Shown: piece after piece, positions 3,601 to 58,800 of the stretch
Layout of the letters: each line of letters begins with the position of its first letter
Numbering within the stretch: position 1 is the first letter of the stretch
Notes under the pieces: model-generated
Told to the model about the DNA's origin: nothing
Databases searched by the model: none
Seen by the model: only the letters and a program-made list of their open reading frames with translations
Position numbers and translations under genes: made by a program
Source: Ischnura elegans
Taxonomy: Eukaryota > Arthropoda > Insecta > Odonata > Coenagrionidae
Length of the DNA: 64,000 nt
Assembly (NCBI RefSeq): GCF_921293095.1
Contig: NC_060247.1
Span: 110,193,111-110,257,110 of the forward strand
Reading direction: 5' to 3'

Positions 3601-5283
3601 TTGGTTCGTAATACAGTATTCTATTTACTCCCAAGGGTCCAGAGGGATTTATCCGGCGAGACGCATGCGGCCCGGGGCCCGCAGGTTGAATACCCTTGCA
3701 CCTCCGTATATAAGCGTTGGGAAAATCAAATAACTAAAAAAGACCAGAGGTCTGAACGTACCATAATTTTGCGCTCCCGTTGCGCGAAGGAAAAATTAGT
3801 ACTGTTGGAAACTTATTGAACGCACCCTGAATGTAAGAGAGGAGAAATAATCGTAGCCCTTCTTTATTATTCAAATTTTGTATCTTTCTCTCTTCATCTC
3901 TCCCTATAACTTGCTGTTGCACTCGCAGTGATCCTTGAACAAGAAAACTACGACTGTCTTATGGGTGCCTGGCGCACTTGCTCGGAAATTGTGAAAGGAT
4001 GGGAGGATTTAGACCTCATCGCTTTCTGCGAGATCACAGACAAACCGGAGCTGGATCCTTTCTCTAAGGACACCATTTGCCAGTGAGTATGGCATACGAA
4101 GGTGTCATATGCCAAGGCCTTTGACTGTTAACCTATCGGTTACCTTAATTTGATGTACACGTCCAGCTTGACAGTTAGTTTTTGCTACAGATAACTCCTT
4201 TAAACTTTATACATTTATCTCGAAATTTTAATGGTGTACGAAATGTATTACTATCACCATTTCAACATTTGCATATGTGTTAAATTGCAAATTTTGTACC
4301 TTTTCATTAGAAGGTACCGCAAACCAGTAGACTGTGGTCAATTTGAAAATTTCACCTCGGATCGTTCTCTAATGCAAATTTTCTTCTAATTGAGAAATAA
4401 GAAAATACTCACAAACATTTACACTATGGGTGTATTCTGAAAATTCGAAAGTGATGCGGGAGTAATGCCTACGTCACCTAAAAATGCAAAATACCGATCG
4501 AAAGGCAGCAATGTGTCAATGAGATGATGTGAAATTAAGTGATAATTTCAAAACATAAAAAGATCCTCATGTTGCCTATGTCGAATTAATATATAGCCAC
4601 CACCCAAAGTATGACTGAAAAGTTAACAAAAAAATCTGTTGCAGAAATATTTCCTTTCACAAATTTTTGTTTAAATCAGAGCATTTTTTTATAATCAGAC
4701 AGATATTATGTCATTAGCAATACCTCTAATCGGAGGGTTATTTCCAATCTTTGCCACTAGATAAAGGCTTTAATTAGTGACTTTACAGTTAGGGCCGTAC
4801 TCATAATCACGGCTTTAGTATTTGCTTGATGAATATCGTCTCAGAAATGGGCTTATACGAAAATTCAGCTTCATAATCAAGGCACCTTCGTCGAGACGAC
4901 CTTCTTTGTTGACTATGAAAGCGGCAACCAAATGAGCTCGCCTTGGCCAATAATGCGGTTTTAATCAAGATGGTCTCAAGTGTACAATAAAGACGCGACT
5001 ATGAATTCGGCCTTTAGTGTTAATTATTACTGACTTTTCAAATATCCGTTGACATTATGCCCAATGAATCGACTTCACCTCATTTTGAATGCATTTATTT
5101 GCCACTTCAATGTGTTCATTTGCACAAAATATTATTCATTTCAGGAAATTCAAGAACTTCTTTGAATGCGGATTGGAAGAAACCAGAATATGTACGGAGG
5201 AAGTCAAAACTTCTCTCAATCAAGTCATATCTATGTGGAGAAGTCAGCCTTTTTGCTCGAAATTCTATCACACAGAGGAATGA
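693..5283 (+). CDS. Gene A: 14-cysteine secreted glycoprotein (27 kDa hemolymph glycoprotein-like), 5' partial
   Basis: Four exons are visible: 693..808, 2683..2834, 3929..4082, 5145..5283 (stop TGA 5281-5283), with AG acceptors and GT donors and phases 0/2/1/2 that keep one frame open for 186 codons. Exons 1-2 (signal peptide and first cysteine) must lie left of position 1. Exon 3 carries the CPTC..SC cluster, exon 4 a helix-rich segment ending in TLC, exon 5 four cysteines (DC, RTC, AFC, TIC), exon 6 three (FEC, RIC, PFC). Sequons NAT and NKS are kept. Lengths match gene C exon for exon, and introns and 3' flank also align with C, so A and C are recent duplicates. The exon 4 donor (A|GTACAG) is weak but sits where C uses an equally weak one. 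By analogy with DUF1397 proteins it would be an extracellular hemolymph protein of unknown biochemical role. The exon structure is firm; the family name is inferred. Confidence 0.85.
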
Positions 5284-5438
5284 AAAACCAACTATGTAAA
5301 TACACAATTCACATGAGATTTGGTGGCCTCGTATCGCAGCATATTGAACCATAAAGACTCTTAATAACCCCTTCCTTGTTGTACACTCGTCTGTTCAACC
5401 TCAGATTCCTCAAATTTGTAAAGTTGAATGATACTGTC

Positions 5439-5444
5439 AATAAA
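5439..5444 (+). promoter_or_regulatory. Polyadenylation signal of gene A
   Basis: AATAAA lies 156 bases after the gene A stop codon, in a flank that aligns with the 3' flank of gene C, which has AATAAA at 43350-43355. The conserved position supports use as the 3' end signal. Confidence 0.55.
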
Positions 5445-12535: not shown

Positions 12536-12575
12536 AATGGAATTTGGAAAATGGAAAGGAAATTGGTGCAATGAT

Positions 12576-15817: not shown

Positions 15818-18800
15818 ATGGTGTCGCCAAGGCAACTGATGATTCTTGGTGAGTAACTTCTCTTAGCGATTACTAAAAGGACTGCATGAAGGTGACACCA
15901 AACCCGTTTCGTGGATACTTTATTTAGTTTGCCACTTTCTTCGCGTTTTAATGATCAAATGGGTGCTCATCATCGAATATTTTAACTTACTCTATGTACA
16001 GTAGTTATTTTATTTGCTATAAATAATTTAATGCATGGTAACTGAACTTTAATGGTAATGGAGATTGGCTAACGCTCTGTGTGGATCCATTCGGTTCTAT
16101 CAGGCACGCAAGTATATCTGCTTCCTACGCTAGAAACGATAGAAAACCGGTTGATATGTTTATTTTCCTTTTGAGAAAGGCTTCTGTTCTTCAATTGCTA
16201 CTCATATTTTTAATGGTTTTACACAGAAATAAGTATTGTTAGATATCATCATGTTCCTACGATTATAGCAGATATATAAATTTCAGAAATATTAATCAAC
16301 GGCTGATGTCTGGAAGCGAAAATTTTGGGTTTGTCATGTTCTAGTCAGTGTGAATTAAAATTTATCGTAGTATGGCATTTCATAATTGCCACCAAGTAAA
16401 TCCTTACATACATTTAGGCAAATTTGATGGTCGTGGACGCATACGCTTTGTTTCGTTAGAAGAGTGAAAGTATGTATGCATGTATCCATGCCCGTAAAGG
16501 ACTTTAAATAATGCTAGTCGTAGTTTTGTTTATTTGTTTTGTATGTGTTGATGGGTGGTGTCCTAACATCTCCTGCCACACGCCTTTTTAAGGGGCTGGC
16601 AGGTTAGTACATAGATATAAATATAATAAGATTTCAAAAATGTCCACAACGCGGCAATGAGCGTAAAAGCGATCCATTTGTTCTCAATATTTACAATTAA
16701 GTATTTCCACTCGCGTGGAATTGCTCTGAAGAGATATTACTTTGTAATATTACAACGCTAGGAATCTATGTATATTTAGGCCAACGGGCGTAGTTATGGT
16801 TTATTTCCCCTTGAAATTCAGATATTACTGCCTGCAGTGATGTGAGTGGCTATGTCTTCAAATCTATTTCATTGCGTGTAAGATGATAGCACTCTCATGG
16901 CCGACTGGGAAAACCTCTTTTATAATATTAGTAGCTTTATCTGGTAAATTAACTCTTTATCTATCAAAAATGGCAATTATGGGATATTAATTTCAATATG
17001 GTTCCGCTGTGATATATGTGAGTCCAGTCTAACTCCTGAATCCCGTTTTTAGGATACATTAATCCTGTTTCATGTCTCAGAACGCGGAAAATTTCAATTT
17101 AAAAGAATAATCTCATTAAGTCGGGAAATTTTTAAATCTATCATTGCCATAAAATTAAGTTTTTTCCTATTCCTGACCACAGTATTTCATACAAATTTTG
17201 AATGCTGGCGTTTAGGTTTTAAAAATCAAAACGATTCCTAAAAAATATCAGACATTGACTATGTTAAATTTATTATTATTTAACAAATCGTCTTGACAGG
17301 TAATCATGAATTGTATTATCTTAGTTTCCATCAATATACATTTCAAGAAGGAATTTCGGAATTCTATACTCTTCTTTTTGTAAATATACAACTAAACGCT
17401 ATAAATAAACTGAAACGTCGGAAAAAATGAAGTTTAATTAAAATATCTACACTCGTAGACAGGGACGGTCTACGGTGATTGGGGGCCCTTAACTGAAGCT
17501 CATGATGGGACTATCCTTATTTTGGGATTCGGGGGTCTACCCACAGAAAATTTTCATTAATTGCATGCGCGGAATTTTATTTTGATGCAATTTATGGCTC
17601 TTAAAAATTAGATAGAGATTAATAAACAATAGAAATTTTGTAAGAAAAATGCTATGAAAATCAAGAACATAGAAGTTTATATAATTTAATAATGTTTATG
17701 GTTCTATTTCATATGAAGCGATTTTGCTTCTGGAAACTGCACTTCTGCTGAAACTGAAATATAACATACCTCCAAAATTAGCTCTTTGAATAAACCTTCC
17801 AAAAACCTATAATTTTCACGATATCCTTCACTATAGACGCGAGCGTTTTTGGAGCCCTGGACGATTGCCAACCAGCCGTCCTAATAGCCAGACCGCCCCT
17901 GCTCCAAGACACAAATTAAATACTTATCCATGCCTGCATGCCGAAATAAATGGTCACATTCGGCATTGGAGGAAACTAACCATCTCGGGATTTGTTTACT
18001 CTCCGCGTGAATTTACTTTCTGTGCGTGAATTGCGATAATCCATTCCAAAATAATGGTTTACCGTGCAAAAATATTCAATTACAAACGATGACTAAGAGA
18101 GGGTTATTGTGCTCTGTTTTTAAATACAGCCATTCTTGTCTTTGCAGGATCTTTTGTAGGATTATTTACACTAATCCTTAGCAATCCAAATGCTCCTCCT
18201 TTCGAAGACACTGAGGAATTTTGGGAATGTCGAGGTAAATCTCTTGTGAGTAAGAGTATCATAAGTCATTTTCCTTAGTGTGTAAAATAATTGAAAGTTA
18301 AAACCAAGCATTACCGTTTGAATTTTGAGAGGCTAAGTTTTAAAATTGAAAATTTAATTTAATTCAATTCTATAAATACCTGACGCACTAGGGTTACAAT
18401 CATCTTTTTCTGCTTTAGAATATGGTTCAATTATCTGATAAACCATTAAGGGTTGAAGCGTATTTGTCAGATCAGGTCAAATAATAGCATAAATGCAGAT
18501 TAACACAAATGTTATTGTAAATCCATTGTTGCAATGCAAATGTTGATATGCAATGTGAGTGCAAAGAATATTTAATTGCTCTCCTTCAAAATATAAATAA
18601 CTATGGTAAGCATCGAATAATTTTTTGTAACCTTACGGGCTTTATAATATTGCCAATCAGCTTTAGACAATACTAAAATTTGCCAAAATAATTTCTCAAA
18701 TCGATTAACATGTATTCAAAACCATATTTTTTCCACTTGTTACTATGAAAACTAGTTAAGGTAAACTCAGTTTCAGTGGTTTCCAATAAATGATATAAAT

Positions 18801-21800
18801 CCTTATTTTCACAGTGTGTAAGGTGTAAACTGTTTCTCATTAATAGAACCGTGATTAATTAATTCATTGCCATTTATAGGCTCAAAGAAGCAAGTTTGAT
18901 GAATGCCTTAATGAGGACTTCTCGGAAGAAGAAGTAAATGCGACAGTTGCGATGTACCCGGACAGTAATTGCATCGTGTGTAAGCATTTGTGCAGGTATG
19001 ATATGTGATACTATCACCATTATCAAGTGGTAGTCTGCCAATTGGCAGTTATTAAGCAGGAAATCAGTCTCCAATTCGGAATTAAATCCTCATTGTTCTA
19101 CACTACCACCTCTATGAAATCCCCTTGGTTTCATGATACATTCCTATCTTCACTTTATGAATATTTCCCTGCTTCTTTCCTTTACTCCCAATTGACCTCT
19201 TTCAATTCTATAACATTCAAAATGCCTTTCATAGTACAATGTCCTCTCGATAGTCCAACAGATATTGGACCAGGACACTGCCGGATTACCCAAAAACGCC
19301 GGATAACTGGAAACCATTAACTATGACGCAGTTTAACGGCAGAAGCAATGCTTCATTTTAAACAACCATGTATATGATATGTTGTATTATACACTACATT
19401 ACTACATGCACGCAATTGAAGTCTTAACGTTAAGTAAAATTACAATAAAGAGAAATGAAGCTTATATTACCTACTGTATTGCTTCGTATCAAACTTCCGC
19501 ATTATTCCATTGGAGTGGAGGGCATAGTAGAGTTTTCTATTTTCGTCTGCTTTTTCACTCTAAATTTTATTTTGAACATTTGATCGGAACTGGATTAGGC
19601 TCACCTGCGAAGTTGGCTACTCCAAATTAGCGTGCTCCCCACCAGTTTGATGCCTGTATAAAAACACCGGTTTACTGGCAAGGGCGGTGAAGTGTAGTGC
19701 TGAATTATAGAGGCAGTACTTTAGCTGATATTCCTTACGACATTACCTATTTTCCTTGCGTATTCTGGCGCCTCGCTGCAGTGGTATTGCTGTTGTCTCT
19801 TCCGAGTCTTGATGATGATGCTTTAGTGAAACACATGGAATAGAATAAATGGCTTATATACTTCATGGAATTATCCTCGGTTTATCTGCTTTTCTGTCTT
19901 TATTTTTTAAATAACCTCACTTCATGGCCTTGTACAATATTCTGCTGAAACAATTATACTAATGTGTAAACGTCATTGGCTAAGAAACAAGTTCATTCAG
20001 CGTCATTAAGGTCTTCGGGCCAATTATGTAAACGTCGAAAGCGTCGAAGCTAAGGGAACGAAACGGACAAGTTCCTTCTACGGCCCCAATTTGAGGATGA
20101 CACCTTAAACCCATTTGAAATCCATACAATTGACTTATTGCATAAATTTATTGTTGTTAATGGATGAAATACAGATTCAAAAATGCTATGATTGATAGCT
20201 ACAAACTGCAATGTCTGATCAGTGGTATCTTAATATGTTAACTCTTTAATAAAGAAAGATCAAATATGTGACTTGTGGAACGACATGGTTGAAAATGTTA
20301 ATATTGCTCTGTTTCCTTCTAAATTTCCAGTAAAATTTACTTAAAATTAAGTGATTAATTGTTGGATGTATGATGGAATCAATTTAAAGGATCAGACTTG
20401 ATTAAAAATGCTTAAATATTAAATATTTAAGATCGTTATTTAAGCAATTGCCTAAAATATACGTGGTAGATCCGGTCTTGTAATAATTATTAAGTGCATG
20501 TTAAGTAGGTATTATAAAACAAATGTATGTCAATGAATTTAGGATTTTTTCAATACCATAGCGAAATGTACTCTCTGGATGCCCTCATTTATACAAAGCG
20601 CCTTTATTTTTACAGGAAACAGGACGTGGTTCAACGTTGCATTAGGGAAACATCAGATGTTCTCCGCACATTTTCCAATAAATCTGAGGAAATGATTCCT
20701 TTCGTGAAAAACATGGTAGAGGAAAGTCTTCTAGCCCTCTGTGATAATGATGGACGATTAATCAACGGTAAAAGTTTTTTTTTTAAGTTATGGATGGGGT
20801 AAACATTAACAATAGGATCATGGTAGAGGTCAACCCTGACCATTGTTATCACTATGTATTCTTACAATTATTTGTTCAGGTTATATTGACATTAATGCAT
20901 AAAACGTTTATTGGTAGAACAAAGCAAAATATGGTGACGTCATCGTCATCATCACTGGTACATAACATTAAGATTGGTTGGACGCAGCTCTCCGCTCAAT
21001 TCTCGTGGCAGCTAATACATTTAGTCCTATGTATAGCTTTTCTTCCACATCCTCAATTAACTGCTCTATATATATCTGCCATTGAAGTTCATGTGAGGTT
21101 TTCCGTTCTTGTAAGATATTTATCCCAAGGCGATTGTCTTCTTCAGGCCATTATGCCTAAAAATATGGCCAAATAAGTTGTTTTTTCTTCATCTCTTTGG
21201 TTATTTTAATGTGTTCCTTTCCCCTGCACTTCTGAGAACTTTTTCATCGCACAATCGGTCGATCAATTTGATTTTCATCATTCTTCTGCAGCGTTGCATT
21301 TGGAATGCCTCCCCCCTTGTTTTTATGCCGCCGTTTGCTTAATCTTCAATGCCTGAGAGAATCATGCGATACTGATGCAACTAGGAACCTAGGCTTTCGC
21401 AGCAAGATTCATTCGTATCGGAGGCTTTTGGGAGAAGCTGCGCATTGCGTTTTGTAAGGCGAGCTTTCGCGGTCATTGCAGGTCGCATCATCTCATTCAT
21501 CTCCTGATGATGCGACCTACAGTGGCCGTGAAAACTCGTCTGACAAAGCACAATATGCAACTGCTTCCGAAAGCCTCCGATACTGTACTGATTTAAGTCC
21601 TTATTTCTCCTATTTGAGCATTTCTGCTTCACATTTATTTTGGAGTAGATATTTCCCTTCATTACTATTCCTCGGTGAAAGACATTTTTTTAAACTAAGG
21701 GCCGGTTTTATAATGTCGAGTTAAGTTTTTTCGGAGCATAAAAATCAGAGTTAGCTATATCTTCCACTTGAAGTAACCTGTTAAACTAACCGTTATCCTG

Positions 21801-32800: not shown

Positions 32801-35800
32801 ATTTCACTGATGAAGCAATGAATGCGACCATGGAATTGTACAAGGATTCCAGATGCCCCCTTTGCAAGCACGTGTGCAGGTGGGAAATGAGTTTTATTTT
32901 ACGTGTGAATCACTATTCCGTACATTTGATTTTTTTTAATATATGCAAATCTATATTTATAAAAGTAAACATCTGTTTGTCTGCCCACTATGCATTTCCA
33001 TACGGCCGCATGGGCTGCAACCAAAGTTAGTACCTACATAACTGCATCTCATGCTCCCAAATCCCTTTTGTGCTACTTGCGGTAGTGTCCGACGCATCCT
33101 TTGTGTCGTTTTCTCATAAAAGTTGTTACTTATGTTATATAACCTCAGTGGTTTTGAGACACAGCCGAGAAGGCACATAAATTGAACACGTACAAAGGGA
33201 AAATATGCGTCAAAGGATTCTAAGCTTAACAATTATTTCTCTTGGCCCAAACCTTAGTGCTTGGGTGAGAGTTCAGACAATTTTTATGGTCTACGCACTT
33301 ACGGACACACATAGTGATCAATATTGTGGTGCTGGGTAGAAGCTAATCTTATGCGCGGTACACGGAAATTGTTTTTTACATTGCTTTCCACTACAAATGT
33401 AAAACTTCATCATAACTGATTTGTTCCTATACCTAAAAATCCTGTTATGTGACCATGAATTCCAAATCTGTAGGTGTCCCACTTCTCTGGGTACTATTCC
33501 TCCCTGCCGACGTCTGTACATGTACATTAGGGCGGATCGCAAAAATCGTTTTTTTTCAAATCCATCTGGCCCAATGAAAAAAAGTTGTGGGACCGATCAA
33601 AAATAAGGCCTAAAAAATTTGAGACCTGTACGTGAACCCCTGACCCTCGTTCAAATGCAATTTAGGGGGGGAGGGTCAAAATTCGAAAAATATAATATTT
33701 TATGGTCATTCCCTATAGATTTTGCCGAGTTACTGTCCTTTAGGACAAATATTTCGTGCATTTTGACGTATCTGCCACCGATTAGCCACAAAATGCCTAA
33801 TTTGAGTCCGCGTCCGCGAAGAAAATATTCCAACGCCCACGCAGCGTCGCGGATACCAGAGCCGCAGGCCGATCCCTTCCCCTCCGCGCTCGCTTCTCCC
33901 CCTCCCACGCCTCTAACACAGTAAAATCCATCACGCGCATGCTGCTAGGAGGTCGTTTATCTTTGATAATATAAATCAGAAGATGGTAGAAGGTAAAAAG
34001 CGATGCGTAGTGAGACGACTTGTCCCTTATTTGGCGCCTCGTCGGCGTTAAACAAATTGATGGTACCAACTTTTAGAGAAGTGATGAAATAATTTTAGAT
34101 CTGCGAACTAAGGAAAGGAGACTACGATCTTGAAGACACCTCTCGAGTTGCTATAGAGGTTTGGGAACTTAGGTTATGCACTTACTTCTATTCCGGTATT
34201 GTCCGACAGCTGTGACTAAATGGATGAATAAGGGTGAAGGCCGCCGGCGTACCCTCCCCGCTCCCCTCTCGAACGCCCCAGATGCAACAAAATTCACACC
34301 AAGTGCGTCTTTCTTCGTTAGTTTTACTAATATTTGATGTATCAGCATCGTCCAGTGAGGAACAATCACGAAGGAATTACTCAATTACCTGCTCTACAGT
34401 CTGTATTTCTTATGTTAGTGTCATTCCTCGTCTTTTGCTGCTGTCAACAAAGTTTTGGTAAATTCTTTCGCGAATCTATCGTCCGTATGTATAATAATTG
34501 GAATATTGAAATTTAAATTTGAACTTCCATCAATAGATTTTTAAATTCCAGAGCGCTAAGCTCAGATATAGCCGAAGGAACCGAAGTCTCTCTCCAATAT
34601 ATCATCAGCCTTTATGTCGATATTAAAATCCAGCAATTAAAAAAATCTCGGATTGGTCGCCAAACGCATCCTTGCAGACAAGCAAATTTGGTCCCTAGAT
34701 TACCCTCCCAACGGTTATGCCGCAAATTCAAGTCAACATAGTGCAATTAGCAAATAGACCACTGTAAGGGATGAAATACGATTTGATGCTTTCCCGGCGA
34801 GTCATGTGGGTAAACTCTTTTCGGGGTTCAACAGAATTTATCCCTAAGGATGAGCCCCCAGTCGGAGCTTGAAATGTTGCCCATTATGGAAAAATTAACC
34901 CGGTGGGAATCCCGAGAAGAGTCTACCCACACTGCAAGGGATGTTGGAATTATGCTTATAGCAAAGGGATGATGCCTCATTTTTGGGCGGTATTCGCTTG
35001 GTACCATCACAATCAAATCCTTTTTAATTCTGTGTATCTAATTTTCACTCCGAAAGGACTCGATCATCGCAGATTTTATAATTTTTTCTAATCCTCCGAC
35101 GGGGGAGGCAAACCTCCAAAAGTGGGACCCTGTTTCTTCAACAACACCACACATTCCCCTCTAAACTTGTATTGATAAGTCCTCTTGCCTTTTTTCATCG
35201 GACAAGAGTATAATCTGTCATTCCAATAAAAAAAGGCCCTTTAATGACACCTCTCTTTTCTTATTCACAGTAATTAGCATCTTTTTCTGTCTACGTAAGT
35301 AATTCTGGTGCACTAGCTTTGATATATCTTACGAAATTATGACTTTTGCGACAGCTAAAGTTGCGGGAACGATCATTGCTGTGGCTTGGTTCTTGCATAT
35401 ACCTCTATCACAGTTGGCAGACGCATTTTCCCCGAAGAAGTTCCGATTTGAGGTTATAGTCCTTAATGTTTATTTCATGAAGAAAGTAAAGATACAAATC
35501 GGCTAATTTCTCGCCAGTTTCATTTTCTTCGGATGAATTGATGAGGAAAATTTTTGATACTATTTTCCCGCACAAGAATTGACGATGATGACTCAACGCT
35601 CTCCTACGATTCCCTTTTTTCCTCAGTTGTCGAGTTTCTTTAGGGTTCAATCCAGCAGCCATCATCTTTCTTTTCGTCAGATTGTCTCTCAAAATACTTC
35701 TCATTGGGGGAACCTTATGCTCCTCCATGCACTTACACGCAAAAATATCGCATAATTTAAAATGTTCCTTTGAAATTGTTTGAGTATTATACTTCAATAA

Positions 35801-38800: not shown

Positions 38801-41800
38801 GGAGAAAAGGAGGAGAGTAAAATTTAAAATGGGGCAATTAGATAGGTGGCGAGAGTGGTTACACCCTGGAGAGACGGTGGAAGGGTGATGTGACAGGAGA
38901 AAAGTGAGGGTAAATACATGTGTAATAATTTGATATGGATGATTGCAGGAGTGTTTGTTGATTGTTTATTAAGTGCATGGTTGGTATTTATATGCTTGGA
39001 ATGAATGATGACAGTGATGAATGAATGAGTAAAGTGAACGGAGAAGGGGAGTGATAAGTAAGAGAAGTGTGACAGATGGAATAATGAAATGCCGGTGTGT
39101 GAAGTGGAGTGAACTGTGTTTGTGTGATGAAAAGGGGGAAGTTCAAAACTGAAGGCGTTGGGGCCACGCCCGTAACCCATAATACTTTGTTTTTGAAGGC
39201 TTTGAAAAAGAAAATTGCATGTCATTCCATTTTCTTTTCCAATGGGGCAAATGTAACACCTAATTTTGAGTGGTTTGTTTTGGTATTTGGTGTGACGTAA
39301 TACATGCAATAATAAGCAGCAGAGGTGGAGTGAGGTAATTGTTGGGATTGTTGACGGCGCGGGAGGAGATGAAAAAAGGAGAGTCGGATTGTGATAGTTA
39401 TGGCGGACGGGTGTTCCCTCGCTCCCGAGTATGTATTATTTAAAGTGAAATAAAATGTTTGAAAGTAACGTGAAAACGAAGTGAAATTAATTGAAACGTT
39501 ACACTGTGGTACCGCTAAATCCATTTAGTCACATTCATAATGGAAGAGAAGCGCGTCACCATAGTTCGCACCCCTTCATAGCCACTCGAGAGGCCTCTTC
39601 ATAGACCGTAGTCTCCTTTCCTGCGTGCGCAGGTCTAAAATTATTTCATCACTTCTCTAAAAGTTGGTAACATCTATTTGTTCAACTCCGACGAGGCGCC
39701 AAATAAGGGGCAAGTCGTCTCACTACGCATCGTTTTTTACCTTCTACCATCTTCTGATTTATATTATCAAAGATAAACGACCTCCTAGCAGCATGCGCGG
39801 GATGAATTTTCCTGTGTTAGAGGCGTGGGAGGGGGAGAAGCGAGCGTGGAGGGGAAGGGATCGGCCTGCGGCTCTGGTATCCGCGACGCTGCGTGGGCGT
39901 TGGAATATTTTCTTCGCGGACGCGAACTCAAATTAGGCATTTTGCGGCTAATTGGTGGCAGATACGTGAAAATGCACGAAATATTTGCTCTAAAGGGCAG
40001 TAAATCGGCAAAATCTATAGGGAATGACCATAAAATATTATATTTTTCGAATTTTGACCTTCCCCCCCTAAATTGCATTTGAGCGAGGATCAGGGGTTCA
40101 CGTAGAGGTCTCAAATTTTTCAGGCCTTATTTTTGATCGGTCCCACAACTTTTTTTCATTGGGCCAGATGGATTTGAAAAAAATCGATTTTTGCGATCCG
40201 CCCTAATGTACATATAAACAAATATCAAGTTTTATAAGTATGAAGCGAAATATATTAAAATTTAGCCTCCTTCATTCCTGCTAGGGGAGTGGTACACATA
40301 AAAGAAATTTAAGCTAAAGCCAAAATTCAGACCTGTAAATTATAGAAATGAATGGCATATATATATGTTCCTAGAAATTTGGTCGTTATATTTTTATATT
40401 ATTATATTTTTCCAGCAAACAGGACGTGATCCGCCGATGCTTAAGAGAATCTTGGGATGTCCTCGCTCTTCTTTCAAATAAATCAGTGGAAATGGTTCCT
40501 TTCGTACGAAGTTTGGTCGAAGAAAGTCTTCACACCCTCTGCGACAACGATGCTGCATTGCTTAGTGGTACTTATATCTTATCTTTTCCTAATATTAACT
40601 TGAAATATCTTTAATTTAAGTAAAAATTTAACTATAAGACCCCTCATTCTGCCGCTCGAAACGATCCGATCTTGCACGATTGGGTCAATCAGAGGTATTT
40701 GAAATTGATTATAGTATAATTTATATTAAAGTTCACTGCTACGTGGGATAAACTTTTATTGCTCGATGTTTCTGTGAACAACCTGTAAGTCTACTGACGA
40801 TATTCCCACCAGAAGGACGAAATTTTGAAGAATGAAAGTTAATTCCACGCAGCAGTTAACCTGAAAATGGATAACACTAGTATAGGGATCTTCAACCTGT
40901 TTTCATCCAAGGGCCAAAAATCGATTTTGCATCGTTCGTGGGGCCATAATGTTCCACGTCGTTTTACCACCACTTAATAAAATAAATATAGAAACCATAT
41001 AATTTCAAATTGCAATAATATCTGTTGGTTAAAAAGTTAAATCAAGGGGATCGGGTTGGTGTGGTTGCCAGAGTGTTTGCTACCCACCCGGTGGGCCCGG
41101 GTTCAAATCCCGGCAGCGGCAGAGAATTTTCAGAGACTGCCCGATCTCTGCTTGAGTGTTGTGTGGAGGACATTTCAAGCGCAACACTCCGTCCGTCGGA
41201 TGGGACGTTAAGCCGTGGTCCCCTTGGCGCCGTTCGTTAAGAGCAGGCTAATGCCGACGCCGGGTTTCTCTCCACCCTTCCTTACCTTCCCCTTTCCTCA
41301 TGGCGCAAATGACCTCAGCTGTCGGTCGCCTCCTCCAAATACCATGCCAAGTTCAATCGACCAATGCGATTTTTGATTTTGTTTATTTTTGACGAGTTGT
41401 GTCTATGTTTGGTTCGTGATACAATATTTTCTGTAGCCTCTAGGGGTCGAAAGAAATCATCCGATGGGATGAATGCAGCCCGGGGGCCGCGGGTTTAAAG
41501 CCCGTGCACTGGTGCATAATAAGTACAGTCGCAGTAATAGTGCAATCGCCGCGAAAATCAAAGAATAATAAAAGACCTGTGGTCTAAATGCTCTATTATC
41601 CTGCGCTCCCATTGTACGAGGGAAAATGAGTACTGTAGGAAACTTAATGAACGGACCCTGAATGTAAGAGTAAAGAAATTATTGTTGCTTGTCTCTATTA
41701 TTCACATATTATATCCTTTCTCTCTCTCTCTCTCTCCTTATCCTTTTCTATTGCACTCGCAGTGTTCCTTGACGAAGAAAACAGCCAGTGTCTTACCGAT

Positions 41801-43193
41801 GCCTGGCGCACTTGCCAGTCTCGTTTGGAAGGAGCGGAGGACTTTAACCTCATAGCTTTCTGCGATTTCACAGACATACCGGACCTGGATCCTTACTCTA
41901 AGCCATTCATTTGCCAGTGAGTATGGTAAACGAAGTGATTATATGCCAAGGCCTTTGACTGATAACCTATCTGTTGCCTTAAGAGGATATAAACCTCCGG
42001 CTTCAATCCTCGTTTTTGTGACAGATTACTTTTGAAACTTAAACAATTTTTCTTGAGCTTTTCAGGGTGTATGAAGTAATCTCTATCACCACTTTAACAT
42101 TTGCCTATGTGTCAAATGGAATATTTTTATACCTTTTGATTACAAGGTACTGCAAAACAGTTGACTGAGATCAGTATTTTCCCTTGTTCCAACTTTGAAA
42201 ATTTTGCCTCGTAACGTTCTCTAATGCAATTTCTCTTCTAATTGAGAAACAGACAATACTCACAAACATCTACACTAAAGGTGTATTCAGAAAATTCGAA
42301 AGTAATGGTGGAGGTTTTACGGGAGTAATACCTACGTCACCTACAAAAGATATAATTCTGATCGAGAGGCAGCAATAGGACAATGCGATGATGTGAAATT
42401 TTGTGATAATTTCTAAACATGAAAAGAATCCACTTGTCACTAAGAGTTAGAAAAAATGAAAGAACTCGTAATTTAGCCTATAGCGGATTAATATATGTGT
42501 AACCACTTACCTGAATATGACTGACAAGTCAATAGAAAAATTTGTTGCAGAAATATTTATTTTTGCAAATTTCTTTTGGAATGAGAACCTTTTTTATCTT
42601 CAGACAGATGTATTCTCATATGAAGTTCCTAACCGAAGGGTAATTTTAAACCTTTGCCACTCGACAAAGGCTTTGATTAGTGACATGGCAGAGAGGGCCT
42701 TATTCATAGTCACGTCTTAAGCATTTGCTTTACGGAAATCGTCTCAAGCATGAGATTATTCGCAACTTTTTGTTTGTTAATGAAGACGTCTTCGCTAAGA
42801 CGAGCTTATGTTGTTGGCTATGAAAGTGGTAGCCAGAAAAACTCGCCTTGACCAATAAAGAGGTCATCATCTATACGGTCTGAACTGCACATTCAATACG
42901 CAACTATTAATACGACTCTAAGATTGTAATTTATGATTGATTTCTATCAATATTTTTGATTTTATCCGTCGACATAAGACCCTCATGAGTTTTGGATGCA
43001 TATATATTCCGCCACATGAATGTGTTCATTAGCAAAAAATATTATTCATTTCAGGAAATATATGGACCTCTTTGAATGCGGTGAGGAAGAAACCGGAAGG
43101 TGTTCGGAGGAATTGAAAACTTCTGTCACTCAAGTCATGTCCATATGGAGAAATCAGACTTCTTGCTCGAAATATTTTCACACAACAGAATGA
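29853..43193 (+). CDS. Gene C: 14-cysteine secreted glycoprotein (27 kDa hemolymph glycoprotein-like), complete
   Basis: Six exons: 29853..29883, 31251..31348, 32764..32879, 40416..40567, 41763..41916, 43055..43193; total 690 nt, 229 residues, stop TGA. Exons 1-2 encode a signal peptide (MATTRHLIVF, then GAAMALAALVLAYP, cleavage likely near LAYP). The mature chain has 14 cysteines: FEC, KEC, RCPLC, HVC, RRC, TLC, SQC, RTC, AFC, FIC, FEC, GRC, TSC. Sequons are NAT, NKS and NQT. The DNDAALL..FLDEEN segment followed by paired cysteines and a C-terminal C..C..C block resembles DUF1397 (27 kDa hemolymph glycoprotein); this is family recognition from memory. Splice sites match consensus; the exon 5 acceptor follows a (CT)n tract. 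Intron 3 is 7.5 kb because of a nested transposon. A and C align through introns, so C arose with A by duplication. Confidence 0.88.
30935..31080 (+). repeat. G-rich repeat fragment in gene C intron 1
   Basis: GGGAGTAGTGGGGACT at the left and AGTCCCACCTGCTAC at the right form a loose inverted pair around runs of G, including a run of about 11 G at 31037-31047. Possibly a small MITE. It ends about 170 bases before exon 2. Confidence 0.3.
33527..34229 (+). repeat. Left terminal inverted repeat of the 6.7-kb element
   Basis: Reverse complement of 39514-40206 with scattered mismatches. Open frames on both strands of each arm (such as 33651-33908 and 39825-40082) are mirror copies of each other and not genes. 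Confidence 0.8.
34806..34930. repeat. Remnant of the CCCGGTGGGA foldback family
   Basis: Ends match the palindrome at 59182-59382: GTGGGTAAACTCTTTTCGGG at the left and, inverted, CCGGTGGGAATCCCGAGAAG followed by AGTCTACCCAC at the right. The middle has GATGAGCCCCC..GGAGCTTGAAATG, a decayed version of the stem plus GAAAC motif. One arm is largely lost. Confidence 0.6.
35408..35797 (-). pseudogene. Transposon-associated protein fragment (CKC..KVP type)
   Basis: A 129-codon open frame inside the 6.7-kb element, with CDIFACKC, then HKVPPMRSILRDNLTKRKMM, then a basic stretch. I recall this C-K-C / K-V-P / F-L-x-D-Q-R-like pattern from unassigned transposon-linked proteins of insects, but give no family name. 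The open frame extends a few codons past the first methionine-like codon to a stop at about 35821, so the N-terminus is broken. It is the best candidate for an element-encoded gene. Confidence 0.4.
35852..36103 (+). repeat. 5' LTR
   Basis: 252 bp, TG..CA ends, 251 of 252 positions identical to 39252-39503. A TAAAATG segment and AT-rich stretch near its 3' half may hold promoter or polyadenylation signals, not resolved. Confidence 0.9.
36201..36792 (+). pseudogene. gag-like ORF with SAP-type N-terminus, interrupted
   Basis: The frame is open from 36081, inside the LTR; the first good ATG is at 36201 (MAGVKKFYELKKVDLQSLLR). Residues 1-45 resemble a SAP-like helix-turn-helix (LQSLLRDRGSTTQGAKFELQ), followed by a long charged coiled-coil with repeated RKWEEERESRD-like heptads, then a segment VQLKVPTFDGR that resembles the start of Ty3/gypsy capsid domains. 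The nested element enters right after, at 36793, and the frame read into it (to 36983) is not native. Beyond the insertion the same frame is open to a stop at 38886-38888, encoding a glutamine/arginine-rich then basic tail. Confidence 0.65.
36793..38403. mobile_element. 1.6-kb transposon with 19-bp inverted ends inside the LTR element
   Basis: CAGCTCGATTCTGTAAATG at 36793-36811 is perfectly inverted at 38385-38403, and CAG flanks both sides (36790-36792, 38404-38406) as a probable 3-bp target duplication. The interior is AT-rich with no long frame, so it is non-autonomous. It is the innermost and youngest layer. Superfamily unknown. Confidence 0.75.
39252..39503 (+). repeat. 3' LTR
   Basis: Direct repeat of 35852-36103 with one substitution. 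It ends about 10 bases before the right inverted repeat of the host element begins. Confidence 0.9.
39514..40206 (-). repeat. Right terminal inverted repeat of the 6.7-kb element
   Basis: Reverse complement of 33527-34229. Ends in GCGATCCGCCCTAA at 40206, followed by TGTACA. Gene A intron homology resumes at AAACAAATATCA immediately after. Confidence 0.8.
41046..41349 (+). mobile_element. tRNA-derived SINE in gene C intron 4
   Basis: The head has a pol III A-box-like TGGTTGCCAGAGTG and B box GGTTCAAATCC (41100-41111). The body contains CTCCGTCCGTCGGATGGGAC and AGAGCAGGCTAATGCC. Flanking duplications AGTTAAATCAA (41035-41045) and AGTTCAATCGA (41350-41360) match at 9 of 11 positions; gene A intron 4 has the uninterrupted AGTTCAATCAA near 3543-3555. 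So it inserted in C after the A/C duplication. The open frame across it is spurious. Confidence 0.8.
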
Positions 43194-46898: not shown

Positions 46899-49800
46899 TT
46901 ACAAGTCATATTTAGCGCATGCACCATTGTCCTTGAAGGTGGATACTGCACCACCTACAAAGTTTTTCAAACCTGAGGAACATGGTTCTATGGTCGCCTT
47001 TGAGCACTCCAGATACGATATGACGCCCCTGTAATGAGAAATAAACGCAAATTATTGTACAGACCAATGAGTTGACTCAAAGGAATAGTTTGACGGTAAA
47101 AACCGGGCATAAATTACTAGTACTATTGTCGTGTATGTAATTTATTATCTTAGTCATAGAATATCAAGAACAGAAAGCAAAAATTGACTCACAATATTTA
47201 CATGTATTTTTTATAAATACTGTCAATAGTATCTTTGTTTTATTCTTCGGAATTTAAATTTTTTACCACAGCTTCATGCATATTTTTTGGTTTGACCATT
47301 TTCAAATACTGATAAAAAATTTCCTTATTATTTAAAATTTTCTCAATGCACATCATTTTGCAGTCTCCTAAATTATCGTTTCCATGGAGAATGGCTTCCA
47401 GAAGTTTTCTCCACTAATTTGAATTTGACTCCTACTCCTGACGGCCATGTCACCACTAACTTTTTTCGTATGTTCAACTGTGAGCAGAAATATCAGATAT
47501 CGGCGAATTCAGGAGTCTGAAAATGCTGCAAATTGTCGAAACCTAAAGCTGCCGAGGGTGCCAAACGCTTTTGGGCTGGCATATCAACTTTTAGATAAAG
47601 GGGTTTGGGAAAAAAATAAGCGAGTTTGGACGTCAACCATGCTTTCGTGGCTGAAGACGATGGCATTCCGAAGTTACATTAGTGTCTCCCTCGGTAAGAT
47701 GTGCCTCGTGAAAATTCTTTAGTCGGAGGCCACTTACAATATTATCCGCTTCACATCACCTGGGGGAGGGGGCAGTAGTTCTTGTTATTACCAGTCAAGA
47801 TGAAGACCACGGTAGTTTGCAGGGCGACCCGCATTTCAGTGCAGTCGTCCTCACCTCACCTTTTTATCTTATTTTTTTTATTTTTTGGCATGTTGTAATT
47901 CTCACGAGTATGAGAAAAATAGACATGCGTGGTTGTGAGGAGATTACTTGATTGAGTGGATAGCAGCGTATTATCAATATTACGATTCTTGACTAGTTAT
48001 TGACCAGACTTTGTGTAGAGCTTGTGAGGTTCATTTGATTTAAGGAATAAGCATTAAGTTATCGGTTTTCATAACACGATGTACATTCATTAAATAATTG
48101 TACTCACTGGCAAGTTTGTTTTCCAAAGGAGAGGTCATTTGCTTGATCCTGATTTTCACAGAAACTCAGGTAGCTCGGCATACGAACCATTGACATATAT
48201 TTTTTGCATTCTCCGGCGTTCTCGCGGATGCACCGGTCATTTTCTTCATTTATCAACTCTGAAAAAGTATCATAGGTTACACAAGATTAATATTATTATA
48301 TAATGATTTTTCCTTTAAAATTTACGAGGGCGGATTTAATTTCACTCTCCGATTGCTCAAAAAAAAACACCATACAAGCAACAAGCAGTTACTGATCGGA
48401 TAGGGCAACTGTGCGTCCTCCCCACCATGCGCTAAAGCCAATTTGTTAGTTTAAAGTTTGTAATCTAATTATCTACTCTGCCACAAATGATTCTTTCGCC
48501 AAAGGTGCCCTGCGGGGAGACAGCCAGAATGACTCGCCGAATGGCTTCAACATTCACACGCTTTGAGATTTATTTATTTTTTATTTTTATTTTATTTTAT
48601 TCTCAATCCACCGGATAGAGCTCTTATTGGCCATTTTACACCGGGGTGTTCAACAAATGTAACAAGTAAACGTACACATACGACCATGCCCTGGATCGGG
48701 GAAACCTACCCAGGCGGGACTCGAACCCGCGACCTCTTGTTTGGCAGGCGAGAACGTTACCCCGCCGCCACCGAGGCCGGCGATATGTCCAATACAAATT
48801 ATGCCGATAAAGGCGATTTTTTTTTAAATTTTCAGCGGCGAGAAAGTGAAAAGAGTGTTATTTAGAAAACTGTGTTAAGAAAAATTTTAGACATAGGCGA
48901 GAAAGCTGTTCAAGGAATGAAGTTTTACCACACAATTTAGTATGAATAATCAAGTCGGATTAATCTTTGAAAACAATAATTACCGTAGAACTCAGAGACC
49001 ATTACTATTATATTATCCATATTATTTTTAGTCAATATTGACTTAATCAGGATTGACGACTATATTTTGTGTTTCTCATTTCCATCATGACGTGATTGTA
49101 TTGGGAAATAATAATTGGCTTCCATAGTGAGGATGATCCTTGTAATATATATTTATACATAATTTTTATTAAAATGAGCTCATGAGATGTGGAAATAAAG
49201 TATTCCAAAAAAATCTACGCAGCGTAGAAGTTATATTGAAGCAAATTATCTGGAAGAAATGGGAAAGCTCTGTATCTCCGAATAAAAATTACTGCATTCA
49301 GAGAGCTGCTAGGAAGTGAAATGAATTGTTCAATGAGTCATTCATGCCTCAGGAATTTATGCAGAGGCAACGGTAATGAACTGTTTCCGTGGAAGTGAGC
49401 ACAATTTAAGAGCTGGCATCCCAGCGCCGTAAACGGTGACTGATAAAAATTATGCACATGGCTAAGCGTAACCTAATCCAAATAACTAGTCCTCATTCGG
49501 ACATACAGAGTATCTCCCACCAAACTAGAAATGAAATCAATTTTACCGGCTAACATCGTTGCATTATTATCGCAAACGAATGGAATCCCACTCTCGAAGA
49601 AATCCACCATGAATTCTGTCATTTCCTTTGCCCTTGGCAAGATTCGAGACAGAGTGGTCGCTCGCTCATGAATGCATTCCAGCACAGATTGCCTGCGGCT
49701 GATGGGAGACCGAAAAAAGAAAACAAAAATCATTTTAAAAATAAGTTACAGTGAACATTTTTGATTTTTGGCAGTGAATGTTATTTCTGTTAACTACTCC

Positions 49801-52800: not shown

Positions 52801-54451
52801 TTTCGATTAGTGTTTTAACATGGATATACCAAACTTCAACAGAATCAAACCTGAAATGATTTCATATAAAAAAATGAAATTAAGCATTAAAACTTAAAAC
52901 CCCAATCCAATTATTTATGTCTAATATAACTTTAAATACTAAATTACATTTTGATGGATGCTTATTTAAAGAAAACTTTTGATGAAAATACTACCTGCAA
53001 AATTGCTGACATCGAGGGCATTCACTATTGTTGAAGTGCTTAGCTGCTTCTTCTATTTTCTCCGTAGTAAACTCCATTTGCATACAGACAAATACATCTA
53101 TTTTGGGATCCTAAAGAAATATTGGCCCAAAATTAGCTCCTAGCTTACAAAATCTACTGTATATGCTAGGGAAAAATTACCAATTTTTTTTAGCAAAAAA
53201 ATTCAAGGTTAACATCGCAAATAATGATAATTGACGTTGAACCTTCAAGCATTTTATCATTTCCAGGCATTACCATTGACAGTAGTGCCATTTCTTATGC
53301 ATAAAATCTTGCAACTAAGAATCATTAAATGAAACTTATAAAACTTATATAATGAATTATAAGAATACTTGTGAAAAATTAAACGCCAATTCTTTCCGAT
53401 GAATTTGAAATTCTCCTCATATTCTTGTCCTCATAGAAAATTGTGGCTATTTTAGACTATTAAGTCGCAGTTACTGCGTAATCCAGGCCATGAATAATAG
53501 CGTGCTGATGTATACTGATTTATGACCTCTTGCATATAAAACCTTTTTAATTTACGTCAGTTATAAATTTTACATTTAAAAATTTTTAATTTTATGAGTA
53601 CAAATCCATCCTATTTTTTATATTTGTGTTTCTAAGCATATTGATTCTGTTCATTCGAAAGAGATGTTGATGATATTTAATATTTTAAATTTTCATCATC
53701 TGGGTATTTGAAAATTCGTATAGTAAGTATATTGATTTTTTTCATTTTAATATCATTATGCTTGCCTTCATTAATTCTATGAATGGTATGTAAATATACC
53801 TAAAAGTTAGATGTTCTCATAGGAGTAATTTCAACCATTTACCATGTGTCTGTGAAAGTATATAGTTTACATGTATTGGGATACTGGCGTTTGAGAAGAA
53901 AATAATAAAATCATGCTTCTATAATTCTTACCAAGACAAATCTCTCACATTCTGTCAAATTCCTTTCGGGCGTGGTCGTTGCCGAGCACGGATCAAATGC
54001 TATAAGAATGGCGAAAAACCCTGTAAAAGAACGAGTTTTTCGGAGTACATCATAACAGCCTTCATTTCAATAAAACAAACTCCAATTGACAAAATTATTT
54101 CTGGAGATGAAAATTAGAAAATGCAGATCAAAATGGTCGAAAGCACAATTGTCTTTTGTTAATGATGAGTGGTTTTCAAAAGAGCCTTGCGAAAGACTAC
54201 AGCGCCTAGTGGCCCAAAATGCTAATATTTATTAAATTGAAACCCAAATTAAAGCAAAATACGTGAGCATATGTTTGCTGGTCGCTGTTGAAATTTGATC
54301 TCCATTAAATACTAAATGGCGAAACCGCGGTCGATTAAAGAAATTGTGTAAAATCACGAAGTCAAAACCTACCATTCACAATAGTATAAATTAACCAATA
54401 GGTACGTAAAAAAGACTTACCGATTGTGAAAATTTGCTTTAATGAATCCAT
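46899..54451 (-). CDS. Gene D: 14-cysteine secreted glycoprotein (27 kDa hemolymph glycoprotein-like), complete
   Basis: Six exons on the - strand: 54421..54451, 53932..54020, 52995..53110, 49547..49698, 48108..48258, 46899..47028; total 669 nt, 222 residues, stop TAA. Phases 1,0,2,1,2 match B and C. Exon 1 gives MDSLKQIFTI, exon 2 GFFAILIAFDPCSATTTPE: a signal peptide with cleavage probably near CSA. Fourteen shared cysteines follow (TEC, FVC, SECPRC, QFC, LEC, FVC, DRC, GEC, SFC, QTC, LEC, EPC, GAC). Sequons are NLT, NNS and NAT. Exons 1-3 were found by inverting the sequence and searching for the family's cysteine pattern and phase, and all splice borders fit. It is the closest relative of E and lies head-to-tail behind it. 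Role inferred as extracellular hemolymph protein. Confidence 0.85.
48567..48782 (-). mobile_element. tRNA-derived SINE in gene D intron 4
   Basis: The - strand head GCCGGCCTCGGTGGC..GGGTAACG resembles a tRNA A box, followed by CTCGCCTGCCAAACAAGAGG (tRNA-Gly-like anticodon arm) and a perfect B box GGTTCGAGTCCCGCC. The 3' end is A/T-rich (AATAAAATAAAAT). Gene E lacks it at the matching place, so it came after the D/E split. Confidence 0.75.
49905..50940 (-). mobile_element. Ty3/gypsy integrase remnant with adjoining SINE-like head, gene D intron 3
   Basis: 49905-50060 carries a tRNA-like block with CCCGGTTCAAAG, related to the SINE at 41046. Beyond it on the - strand, 50898-50662 encodes an integrase-like segment (ADIVGPIPP, TMVDRLSHWP) with the expected T-D-R replaced by C-D-R. 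50481-50218 encodes a typical gypsy C-terminal tail (QLRPTPVSRHITH, FIHKDLEMSTH). The same composite occurs in gene E intron 3 at the same distance upstream of exon 4, so it predates the duplication. Interrupted and dead. Homology resumes at 52190-52310. Confidence 0.75.
51430..52130 (-). mobile_element. Non-LTR retrotransposon 3' fragment, gene D intron 3
   Basis: The - strand frame near 52115-51980 encodes GAETWTLRKEGDRRLEAFEM, the C-terminal region typical of insect endonuclease-reverse transcriptases. 51450-51690 is the inverse of 59700-59880, where the same element appears on the + strand. A 200-bp GC-rich segment (51700-51900) lies between these parts and is of unknown origin. Confidence 0.65.
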
Positions 54452-54519
54452 GCCGAGGGTTGGTTGAATAATTCCTAGGAGATTTTGCTCGCCTTAAATG
54501 CTATGATGTTTGTGGATCG

Positions 54520-54840: not shown

Positions 54841-55834
54841 CTTTGAGCTGAAAATTTTCCTGGTTTAAGGAACAGCAAAATTTGCGCTTGTACTCTTTGA
54901 AGTATTGGGCAATCGAGTGATCAGAGAAAGAAATGCACGCCTATCGTCACGGACTAATTCAGTCCACGATCTTTGGCCTTACTGATTAGCTCTTGGAGTG
55001 ATTGGGCCTTTATCCCTCTAACAAAAATACAGAGAAACTTTTAGATAACGGGTAAGAGCACCGTAGTCTAATCAATGGAATGATCCCAATCCCGAGACAT
55101 GCTAAGGAATTGCGCACTTAAAGAAAGTGCCGAGATAAATGACCCTCACTCACATGTGTGAATGAAGAACTAATGCAACTTAAAGTTTTTCTCTGTGCAT
55201 ATTATTGGAAAAAGGAACGCGACTTGGAGGATAGATTACTTGGATTCTATGCGCCTGCATCTACGCGGTGCCGTAGAAGCCAACACAAGAGTGTGAGGCA
55301 GATGGTGAGAAATTACGTTGTCAAAATAAATTTATTTTTATTGCATCTGATTACATATTACTTGGGAAATGTTTTCTTAATATTCTCTCCCTTATTATTG
55401 TAATGAATTCTGTGATTTTGACTTGGCGTAATTTACTTTGGTGGAACATATTTGTTTCTTTATTGCCAAGCAAGTTGTGCCAGTACTTATTTATTTTTTC
55501 ATTGGTTGAGCAGAAATTGTCATCTGTATTAGTAATTTTCGTAAGGAGAAACACCGAGCATAATACGTTTTACTGATTCATTTACTGATCATGGGTTTGG
55601 GGCTTGGCGGGTCAAACCTTGTAAATTGGTTATAGATGAAATTGGATGATCTTGGTGACTTATATATATGAAAATATTTATGCATGCCTTTTATGACTCT
55701 AAACAAGTAAAATTCTCACATTTTGGTCATACTTGACGTTAAGTGATCAAGCATTTGGAAAAGACAAGAAAAGTAATCAAGTCATTGAAATTCTTTTGAT
55801 ATTTACTTGACCCGTAATGTCATGTACACACAAG

Positions 55835-58800
55835 TTACAAGTCATATTTAGCGCATGATGCAATGCCCGTGAAGGCGGATATTGCACCCCCGACAAAGTC
55901 CTTCAATCCTGAGGAGCATGGTTCGATATTCTCCTTTGAGCACTCCAGATACGTTATGACGCCCCTGTTATGAGAAAAAATCACGAATAATTAAACTAAC
56001 AAATTAGTTGTCGATGCTAATTAGTTTGACGTTAAAAGTATGACAAATTACCAGTAAGATAATCGTTTATGTAATTTGTAATATTAAACATAGAATGTCA
56101 ATATCAGGAAACGTTAATTGAGCGACAATATTTAAATATATTTGTTGATAAATACTTTCACTACTATCTTTGCAATAATCATCGTATTAAATTCTTTTTT
56201 ACCTCATCTTCATGTATTACTTTTGGGTTTGACGATTATTGAATTTTTTCATATGTTCAACAGTGAGCAGAAATATCAGATATCGGCGAATTCAGGACTC
56301 TGTAAATGCTGCATACTGTCGAAATCTAAATCCACCGAGTGTGTCCTACGTGTTGGGGACGGCAAATCCGTTTAGATGTAGAAGTTTGGCACAAAGTCAG
56401 TGAGTTTGCACGTCAACCATGCTTTAGTGGCTGAATGTGACGGCATTCTAAATTTAATTGAGTATATGCTTCAGTTAGAGATGTGACGCTTCTTGAGTTA
56501 CAGACGGTAAGCCTCCCACAACATTATGTGCTTCACATCTCCTGGGGTTGAGGGCAACCGGTCTTAGCTCTTTTATTACCAGTCAAGGTGGAAACCATGG
56601 TAGTTTGGCAGATCGACACGCATTTCAGTGCAAGCGTAGTAACATTTTCTTAGCTATAACTAACGCTAGCTTACGTCAGGCTAACAGTTAACTTACGCTG
56701 GCTAACAGCTATGAAACTGCGATTTCAAAGGTAGGGAAAACCCCCACATAATTACCACGAGTTTTACCTCACCTGTTTTTTTATTTATTGGCATGTTGTA
56801 ATTTTCACGAGTACGAGAAAAAATAGACATGCGTGGTTGTGAGGAGACTACTTGATAGGAGAATTCAGTGGAAAGCTGCGTAAAACCAAAATAACGATTC
56901 TTGACTAGTTATTGACTAGAACTTGTGTACAACTTGTCTAGTTCATTTTATTTTAGGAACAGGCAATAAGTTATAGATTCCATAACACGATGTATATTCA
57001 TTAAATAATTGTACTTACTGGCAAGTTTGATTTCCAAAGAAGAGGTCATTTTCTGCATGCTGATTTTCACAGAAACTCAGGTAGCTCGGTAAGTGAATCA
57101 TTGGCATATAATGTGTGCATACTTGGCCGTGCTCATGCAAACATCGCTCATTTTCTTCATTTGTCATCTCTGGAAGAATATCATAGGTTATACAGCATTA
57201 TCTAAGATGAATATAAAAAAATATATCCTTTCAAATTTATGAGGGCGGATTTTTTTCATTTTCCGAACTCTTAAAAATTTAAAAACACTTTATAAGTGAC
57301 AGGCGGGTATTGCTCAGATAGGGCAACTGCGCGTCCTCCCCACCATACGCTCAAGAAACTTCTCACCGTAAGTTGATAGTTTAAAGTTTGTAATCTCATT
57401 AGCTACTCTGCCCCATATGATGATTTCGCCAAAGACGCACTGCGGAGCGACAGACAGAAAACTCGCCGAAAGGTTTCAGCGTCGACATCATCTTGACCTT
57501 TACGCCGATAAAAGAGAATTAATTTGATGCACAGTGGCTGGAGTGTTAAACTTTGTGGAATACTAGGTCCATTCCTATTCAAAAGAAAAGAATACACATG
57601 CTGACAAATGGAAGTGTCATCTCAGCGCTGAAGCAGACCAACTGCTCCTTGAGTAATTTCATTGGGGCATTTTCGATCACCCGCCGCACAGTGGGTGGAA
57701 ATCGGAAAAAGCCGGACAAAACTACAAAATGGCTTTTTTTGAGTTATAAACTTGAAACTTCGCAGGTATACTAAAAAACGATTGAAATTTATTGATATGT
57801 ACTTCATTTGACATAGATCCTACCCGTTACTGAGATACAGAGGCTCAAACGTGACGAAATTTCCATAAAAACTTCGCCGTGCAATGCCAACCTAGTGCCG
57901 CGTGGCTTCGGACATTACGCTGAAATAAAGATGTGGCTAGGAGGAAAGCTATTGCAAATAAGCGATGAGCTTCACGACAAGGCAAATTTCATTGAAAGTT
58001 AATTGCGTCACCTTCTATGGTAGGCATCTTAAAGCATTTCCAAAGGCGTGACCAATAGGGTAGTTTCCTTCATCAAATAAAACGAAAGGCATTGATTGCG
58101 ATTCGTTACCCACCGTTAGTGTATTCATAATATACAAATCATTTGGTTTTAGAAATACCGGTTTAGACGAATGGCAGAGGGTCAATTTTTATCCTCATTT
58201 GAAAAAGGCCAGATTGGCGCCCATACGATGCCACGCCACGTGACGTCACAGGGGCCTAGTTTCTATACGAGTAGATAGGAGTTTTACATCTTCTGATGTT
58301 ACCAATACATGCATGAGGCACAGAGCTCAGGGAAACATGTCTTCATAATCACCTTTTAAAACTGGCTAAGGTCGGATAGTTTTCCTCGTTTGATAACGGC
58401 ATAAATAATCCTTATTTAAGCCAAGCGCTACCATCTAGCAGGGTACTCCGCTATCTGATAGCAGCCTGCGTCGTATCGACGCTCAAGCCTCGCCCAAAGA
58501 TCACCTCATAAGGATGGAGGTGGAACCAGAAATCCATCAACCGGACTTTTTCCCATCATTCCTACTTAGCCATCGCGTTTTCGCGCGCTTGAAATTTTTC
58601 ACTTTTCATTTAATCGCGAAAAATAGATATCGTCATTTAAAAATCTAAAAGCGTGAAATACGTACTCCAGGAGTAATAGATTGGATTTTTCGATTTAGGC
58701 AATAAAAAAATAATCAAAAACCACCCTATTATTACATGATAGAGGCGATTATGGTGAAAAGACACCACGACTGTGCTCAATATTTAGCTATGAAACAATT

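What the first reader, a model, noticed from the sequence alone, without database searches (positions are those of the whole stretch)
3929..57169. Replacement changes far exceed silent ones in the C-terminal exons of both recent pairs
By hand codon comparison: A versus C exon 5 has 22 replacement and 2 silent codon differences, exon 6 has 19 and 2, while exons 3-4 have 26 and 12. D versus E exon 5 has 20 and 2, exon 4 has 9 and 2, exon 6 has 11 and 6. All cysteines are kept and neighbouring non-coding sequence aligns well. The same exon is most extreme in two independent pairs, as expected for diversifying selection on a surface facing a partner or pathogen.
Basis: seen in the sequence. Interest (0 to 1): 0.75.

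Follow-up and report, generated by a model that had tools for sequence, protein, structure and literature searches.

The report
Damselfly gene cluster, one fast copy
The window holds part of a large cluster of duplicated genes for a secreted-type, cysteine-rich insect protein, and the reported excess of protein-changing differences comes mainly from one fast-evolving copy, with only weak evidence that one part of the protein is under recurrent pressure to change.

Summary
The counts are right: every one was reproduced. The inference holds only in part. The genes belong to a DUF1397-like cluster (27 kDa hemolymph glycoprotein family) of at least 20 copies in what is very probably the damselfly Ischnura elegans. 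A and C are not sister copies: introns and codons give ((A,(G,K)),(C,H)). Corrected for site numbers, no exon in the 14 pairs tested has dN significantly above dS (A/C exon 5: 2.5, P 0.10; D/E exon 5: 1.2, P 0.45). Against introns, the A lineage exceeds the neutral rate (exons 3-6: 1.35-1.63, p 0.038-0.001; exon 5: 1.8-2.1, p 0.020-0.004; uncorrected for choosing A); C, H and G lie at 0.15-0.62. D/E exon 5 is about neutral (0.93-1.20). The family-wide exon 5 site test (p 0.011) fades without A (0.27) or with double-nucleotide changes allowed (0.07). Best reading: exon 5 is the least constrained segment of a conserved 14-cysteine scaffold, and copy A had an episode of accelerated, probably adaptive, change. 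Diversifying selection in two independent pairs is not shown.

The parts
693..808 (+). gene A exon 3 (exon 2 lies before the window)
2683..2834 (+). gene A exon 4
3929..4082 (+). gene A exon 5, the segment with the strongest excess on the A lineage
5145..5283 (+). gene A exon 6 with stop
18148..18245 (+). gene B exon 2 (hydrophobic stretch and first cysteine)
18880..18995 (+). gene B exon 3
20616..20767 (+). gene B exon 4
23060..23210 (+). gene B exon 5
24285..24426 (+). gene B exon 6 with stop
31251..31348 (+). gene C exon 2
32764..32879 (+). gene C exon 3
40416..40567 (+). gene C exon 4
41763..41916 (+). gene C exon 5
43055..43193 (+). gene C exon 6 with stop
53932..54020 (-). gene D exon 2
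52995..53110 (-). gene D exon 3
49547..49698 (-). gene D exon 4
48108..48258 (-). gene D exon 5
46899..47028 (-). gene D exon 6 with stop
60779..60930 (-). gene E exon 4 (exons 2-3 lie beyond the window)
57019..57169 (-). gene E exon 5
55835..55964 (-). gene E exon 6 with stop

Best explanation
Genes A-E are tandem copies of a DUF1397-like secreted-type protein (hydrophobic exon 2, 14 conserved cysteines, a fixed exon pattern). Shown: the cluster, the conserved scaffold and splice phases; constraint on copies C, H and (in three of four intron filters) G; exon 5 as the segment with the highest replacement rate; and a replacement rate on the A lineage above the rate of its own introns, strongest in exon 5. 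Inferred: after duplication, copy A was freed for a changed role and fixed replacements by selection, with exon 5 as the tolerant segment where most of them landed. D and E diverge at about the neutral rate in exon 5 and under mild constraint elsewhere. The binding partner is unknown; a hemolymph or gut defence role is a guess from relatives.
For: Trees from codons and from introns agree. Omega on A 1.25 against .38 elsewhere, p .0011 for the difference; exon 5 of A against omega 1 p .027. With introns as yardstick: A 1.35-1.63 over exons 3-6 (p .038 to .001 across four alignment filters) and 1.81-2.14 in exon 5 (p .020 to .004); C .15-.23, H .30-.37, G .23-.62, K .77-.90. Joint bootstrap of introns and codons, 200 draws: A 1.54 (95% 1.04-2.28), exon 5 2.08 (1.14-3.27). 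A's intron branch is .10-.12, within the range of the other tips.06-.17. Branch-site p .0039; 0 of 39 completed null simulations reach it. A keeps an open frame, splice sites and every conserved cysteine in exons 3-6. Exon 5 one-ratio omega .73 against .41 in exons 4 and 6 over 15 of 17 copies.
Against: A was singled out after seeing the data; multiplied by 5 tips the intron-anchored p values become about .19 to .005. Over all exons omega on A is not above 1 with codons alone (p .54). Allowing double-nucleotide changes lowers the branch-site result to p .092 over all exons and .050 in exon 5. Stricter intron filters lower the yardstick and so raise omega; unfiltered flanks gave A/C exon 5 .61, p .011 below 1. 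No population data, expression data or orthologues were at hand.
Confidence: 0.6

Rival explanations
1. Only relaxed constraint: duplicate copies A, D and E drift at or near the neutral rate, exon 5 being the least constrained segment, and the extreme A/C ratio is chance in a 50-codon exon picked for being extreme.
For: Whole-gene site tests are null. D/E exon 5 .93-1.20. No exon of 14 pairs significant by Fisher test. A over all exons against omega 1 p .54 with codons alone. Low silent count in exon 5 inflates the ratio. Unfiltered flanks give ratios below 1 for both pairs.
Against: With filtered introns A exceeds its intron rate while keeping its frame and every conserved cysteine, which a freely drifting copy would tend to lose (inference).
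Confidence: 0.3
2. Recurrent diversifying selection on an exon 5 surface across the family.
For: Exon 5 of 15 copies M1a/M2a p .011, exons 4 and 6 null. D/E/I trio exon 5 omega 2.56, p .028, and .036 with double changes. Exons 5+6 of 7 copies M7/M8 p .014. Among the top sites, 7, 11, 15 and 18 fall near one helix face (worked out by hand).
Against: p .27 without A.50 without A and K.21 without D, E, I.073 with double changes, and .53 and .84 with double changes without A or without D, E, I. The D/E/I result rests mainly on the long branch to I, a copy that lost a cysteine and has a shortened exon 5. D/E pair alone p .61. Periodicity test p .09-.18.
Confidence: 0.2
3. Gene conversion brought a divergent exon 5 into A.
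For: Distances among introns vary between regions, so some exchange in the cluster is possible.
Against: None of 14 other copies exceeds 78% nucleotide identity to A exon 5, and the best are the expected relatives G, H, C. A divergent donor would bring many silent differences; A/C has 3.5 in 29.7 sites, whereas B/C has 16.2 in 28.2. Exon and intron trees agree.
Confidence: 0.04

Closest known systems
DUF1397 / 27 kDa hemolymph glycoprotein family (Pfam PF07165)
   Same: D and E pass the Pfam cut-off along profile positions 31-187; B and C match weakly in the same order; the 7 copies aligned share 13 cysteines in exons 3-6. That PF07165 is the family of the 27 kDa hemolymph protein is recalled.
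Lepidopteran 27 kDa hemolymph protein (P27k)
   Same: A secreted hemolymph protein; reported as raised in Galleria after fungal challenge (passages of PMC4224417) and as a marker of an oenocytoid cluster in Bombyx (passages of PMC8914287).
   Different: Not aligned with it here; no expression data for the damselfly genes.

Membership tests
DUF1397 (PF07165) | score above Pfam gathering cut-off of 25.7 bits | tested here: met
DUF1397 (PF07165) | A-type copies homologous to copies that pass | tested here: met
   A aligns with C (64%) and B (45%), and with D/E at 23-24% with 13 shared cysteines and the same exon phases
DUF1397 (PF07165) | secreted | tested here: inconclusive
   exon 2 of the 8 copies translated reads like the rest of a signal peptide (by eye); exon 1 was not found
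Genes under recurrent diversifying selection | site class with omega above 1 in site models | tested here: inconclusive
   whole gene null in 7 copies; exon 5 of 15 copies p .011, lost without A
Genes under recurrent diversifying selection | variable sites on an exposed face | not testable with these tools

The most novel reading that the evidence does not exclude
Exon 5 of this family forms a partner- or pathogen-facing surface under recurrent selection in several damselfly copies, A being the clearest, so that the cluster is an unrecognised arms-race locus of odonates.
Probability: 0.2. Interest if true: 0.5.

Novelty: new member of a known kind. Interest (0 to 1): 0.27.

Why it matters
DUF1397 or 27 kDa hemolymph proteins are reported from hemolymph, mosquito peritrophic matrix, louse salivary glands and centipede venom (passages); one of these papers calls the function unknown. 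A large cluster with one accelerated copy and a defined fast segment gives a concrete place to look for what they bind. It also shows how raw replacement-to-silent counts in short exons can mislead when the true sister copies lie outside the window.

Tried and rejected
Exons 1-2 by similarity of upstream DNA first led to what looks like the 3' flank of neighbouring genes; exon 2 was then found by homology to D, E and Z copies, exon 1 was not. Unfiltered 300-base flanks gave larger neutral distances where insertions broke the alignment (K .32 for D/E and .53 for A/C; exon 5 omega .74, p .17, and .61, p .011 below 1); I preferred filtered alignments, and this choice favours the A reading. No solved relative (phmmer, one hit, E 2.3). 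Exon 5 alone folded poorly. Gene conversion was rejected as told under the rivals. The branch-site simulation was set for 160 draws; 39 finished in time.

Full report

Checking the counts. Corrected for sites, ratios are A/C exon 3 .24, exon 4 .56, exon 5 2.51 (P .099), exon 6 .80, all .73; D/E exon 3 .49, exon 4 1.05, exon 5 1.18 (P .45), exon 6 .37, all .70; C/H all .31; B/Bp all .40; G/K all .61. Pairwise ML agrees: A/C exon 5 omega 4.96 with p .061 against 1, D/E exon 5 1.35 with p .61, C/H exon 5 1.14 with p .87.

Who is related to whom. Of 105 rooted arrangements of A, C, G, H, K with B and Bp as outgroup, the best has ((A,(G,K)),(C,H)); two others lie within 2.1 log units and differ only in where the outgroup joins C and H. 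Introns give the same unrooted tree, each of the two groups with 98-100% support. So the A/C comparison crosses the deepest split of this subclade. In the protein tree of 15 copies, used, C and H are not grouped (support 46).

Codon models (own code). Seven copies, exons 3-6, 183 codons: M1a/M2a 2dl 0, M7/M8 p .56, M8a/M8 p .25. Exon 5 alone: p .17.087 and .030; exon 6.79.57.17; exons 5+6.055.014.006; exons 3 and 4 null. These exon sets were chosen after seeing the finding. Exons differ in replacement rate (p .036), not significantly in silent rate (p .11). Two-ratio test: A 1.25 against .38, p .0011; A against 1, p .54 over all exons.027 in exon 5.91 in exon 6. Branch-site A: p .0039 over all exons.0089 in exon 5.071 in exons 3-4.45 in exon 6. 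Of 11 branches tested over all exons, A has p .0039, the B/Bp stem .040, the rest .087 or more. With a double-nucleotide rate A becomes .092 over all exons and .050 in exon 5, and K .47. Of 160 null simulations planned 39 finished; none reached 3.84 and their 99th percentile is 2.5, against the observed 8.31; these simulations held no double-nucleotide changes. That multinucleotide mutations can mislead branch-site tests is recalled; a search listing shows papers on the subject.

Intron yardstick. With the silent rate set equal to the intron rate on each branch, A is 1.35 (p .038) and exon 5 1.81 (p .020) under the first filter. With three other filters A is 1.49, 1.63, 1.63 (p .007.001.001) and exon 5 1.97, 2.14, 2.12 (p .010.004.005); C .19-.23, H .35-.37, G .36-.62 (the last not different from 1, p .068), K .77-.88. 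Exons 3, 4 and 6 of A are 1.18-1.55 and never significant. Joint bootstrap, 200 draws: A at or below 1 in 2.5%, exon 5 in 1.0%. When the silent scale was left free, A was stronger over all exons (p .015) and in exon 5 (p .003), but in exon 5 the GK and CH branches also rose above 1 (p .034.028). For D/E the exon 5 value is .93, 1.14, 1.20 (p .73.56.42) and the whole .56-.73 (p .018 or less). Unfiltered flanks gave lower values for both pairs, A/C exon 5 .61 (p .011 below 1) and D/E exon 5 .74; I judge them misaligned in part.

Family-wide. Fifteen of 17 copies (F and Q left out as fragments; Zr2, which has a stop in exon 2, kept): one-ratio omega .73 in exon 5.41 in exons 4 and 6; exons 4-6 together M1a/M2a p .125. 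M1a/M2a in exon 5 p .011, exons 4 and 6 none; without A .27; without A and K .50; without D, E, I .21; with double changes .073.53 (without A) and .84 (without D, E, I); Z/J set .44. D/E/I exon 5 is 2.56, p .028, exons 4-6 together 1.43, p .13; most of the change lies on the long I branch. The best sites, 24, 7, 18, then 15, 20, 12, 19, 11, suggest a helix face, but the periodicity test gives p .09-.18 and the fold of exon 5 alone has mean pLDDT 50.

Function. From relatives only: Galleria 27 kDa hemolymph protein raised after fungal challenge (PMC4224417, passages), Bombyx oenocytoid cluster (PMC8914287, passages), mosquito peritrophic matrix (PMC5865745, one passage), louse salivary glands (PMC12106848, one passage), centipede venom (PMC6878950 and PMC5869384, passages). 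The searches 'DUF1397' (7 papers), '27 kDa hemolymph' (12 papers), '27 kDa glycoprotein' with insect (6 papers), a combined search (2 papers), odonate immune gene terms (1 paper) and a combined search with odonate terms (10 of 1,123 listed) showed no paper on this cluster in their listings; the library holds open-licence papers only.

Verdict. The evidence supports one accelerated copy, A, more than diversifying selection in two pairs.

Noticed in passing
window 33517-40216: Intron 3 of gene C holds a 6.7 kb stretch bounded by 614-base inverted repeats, 95% complementary, with a 98% direct repeat inside and a 304-residue open frame at 36069-36983; looks like a mobile element.
   Followed up: partly
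window 50193-50714 and 61446-61968 (-): D and E share decayed retroelement-like sequence upstream of exon 4 (kind judged by eye), so the insertion probably predates their duplication; in E it seems to run on towards 63900.
   Followed up: partly
window 48600-48800 (-) and 41050-41300 (+): Sequences with tRNA-like promoter boxes in introns of D and C, probably SINEs; judged by eye, no tRNA or Rfam search run.
   Followed up: no
L024, about base 7982 (exon 2); exons 4-6 in L020: A copy (Zr2) has an in-frame stop in its exon 2 while exons 4-6 are open.
   Followed up: no
exon 6 of G (L008), K (L018) and F (L007): These three copies share an earlier stop in exon 6, so their C-termini are shorter than those of A, C and H.
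   Followed up: no
L010, gene I (G000:C2:110300646-110306300, - strand): The D/E relative I has lost one conserved exon 4 cysteine, has a shortened exon 5, and no exon 3 was found.
   Followed up: partly
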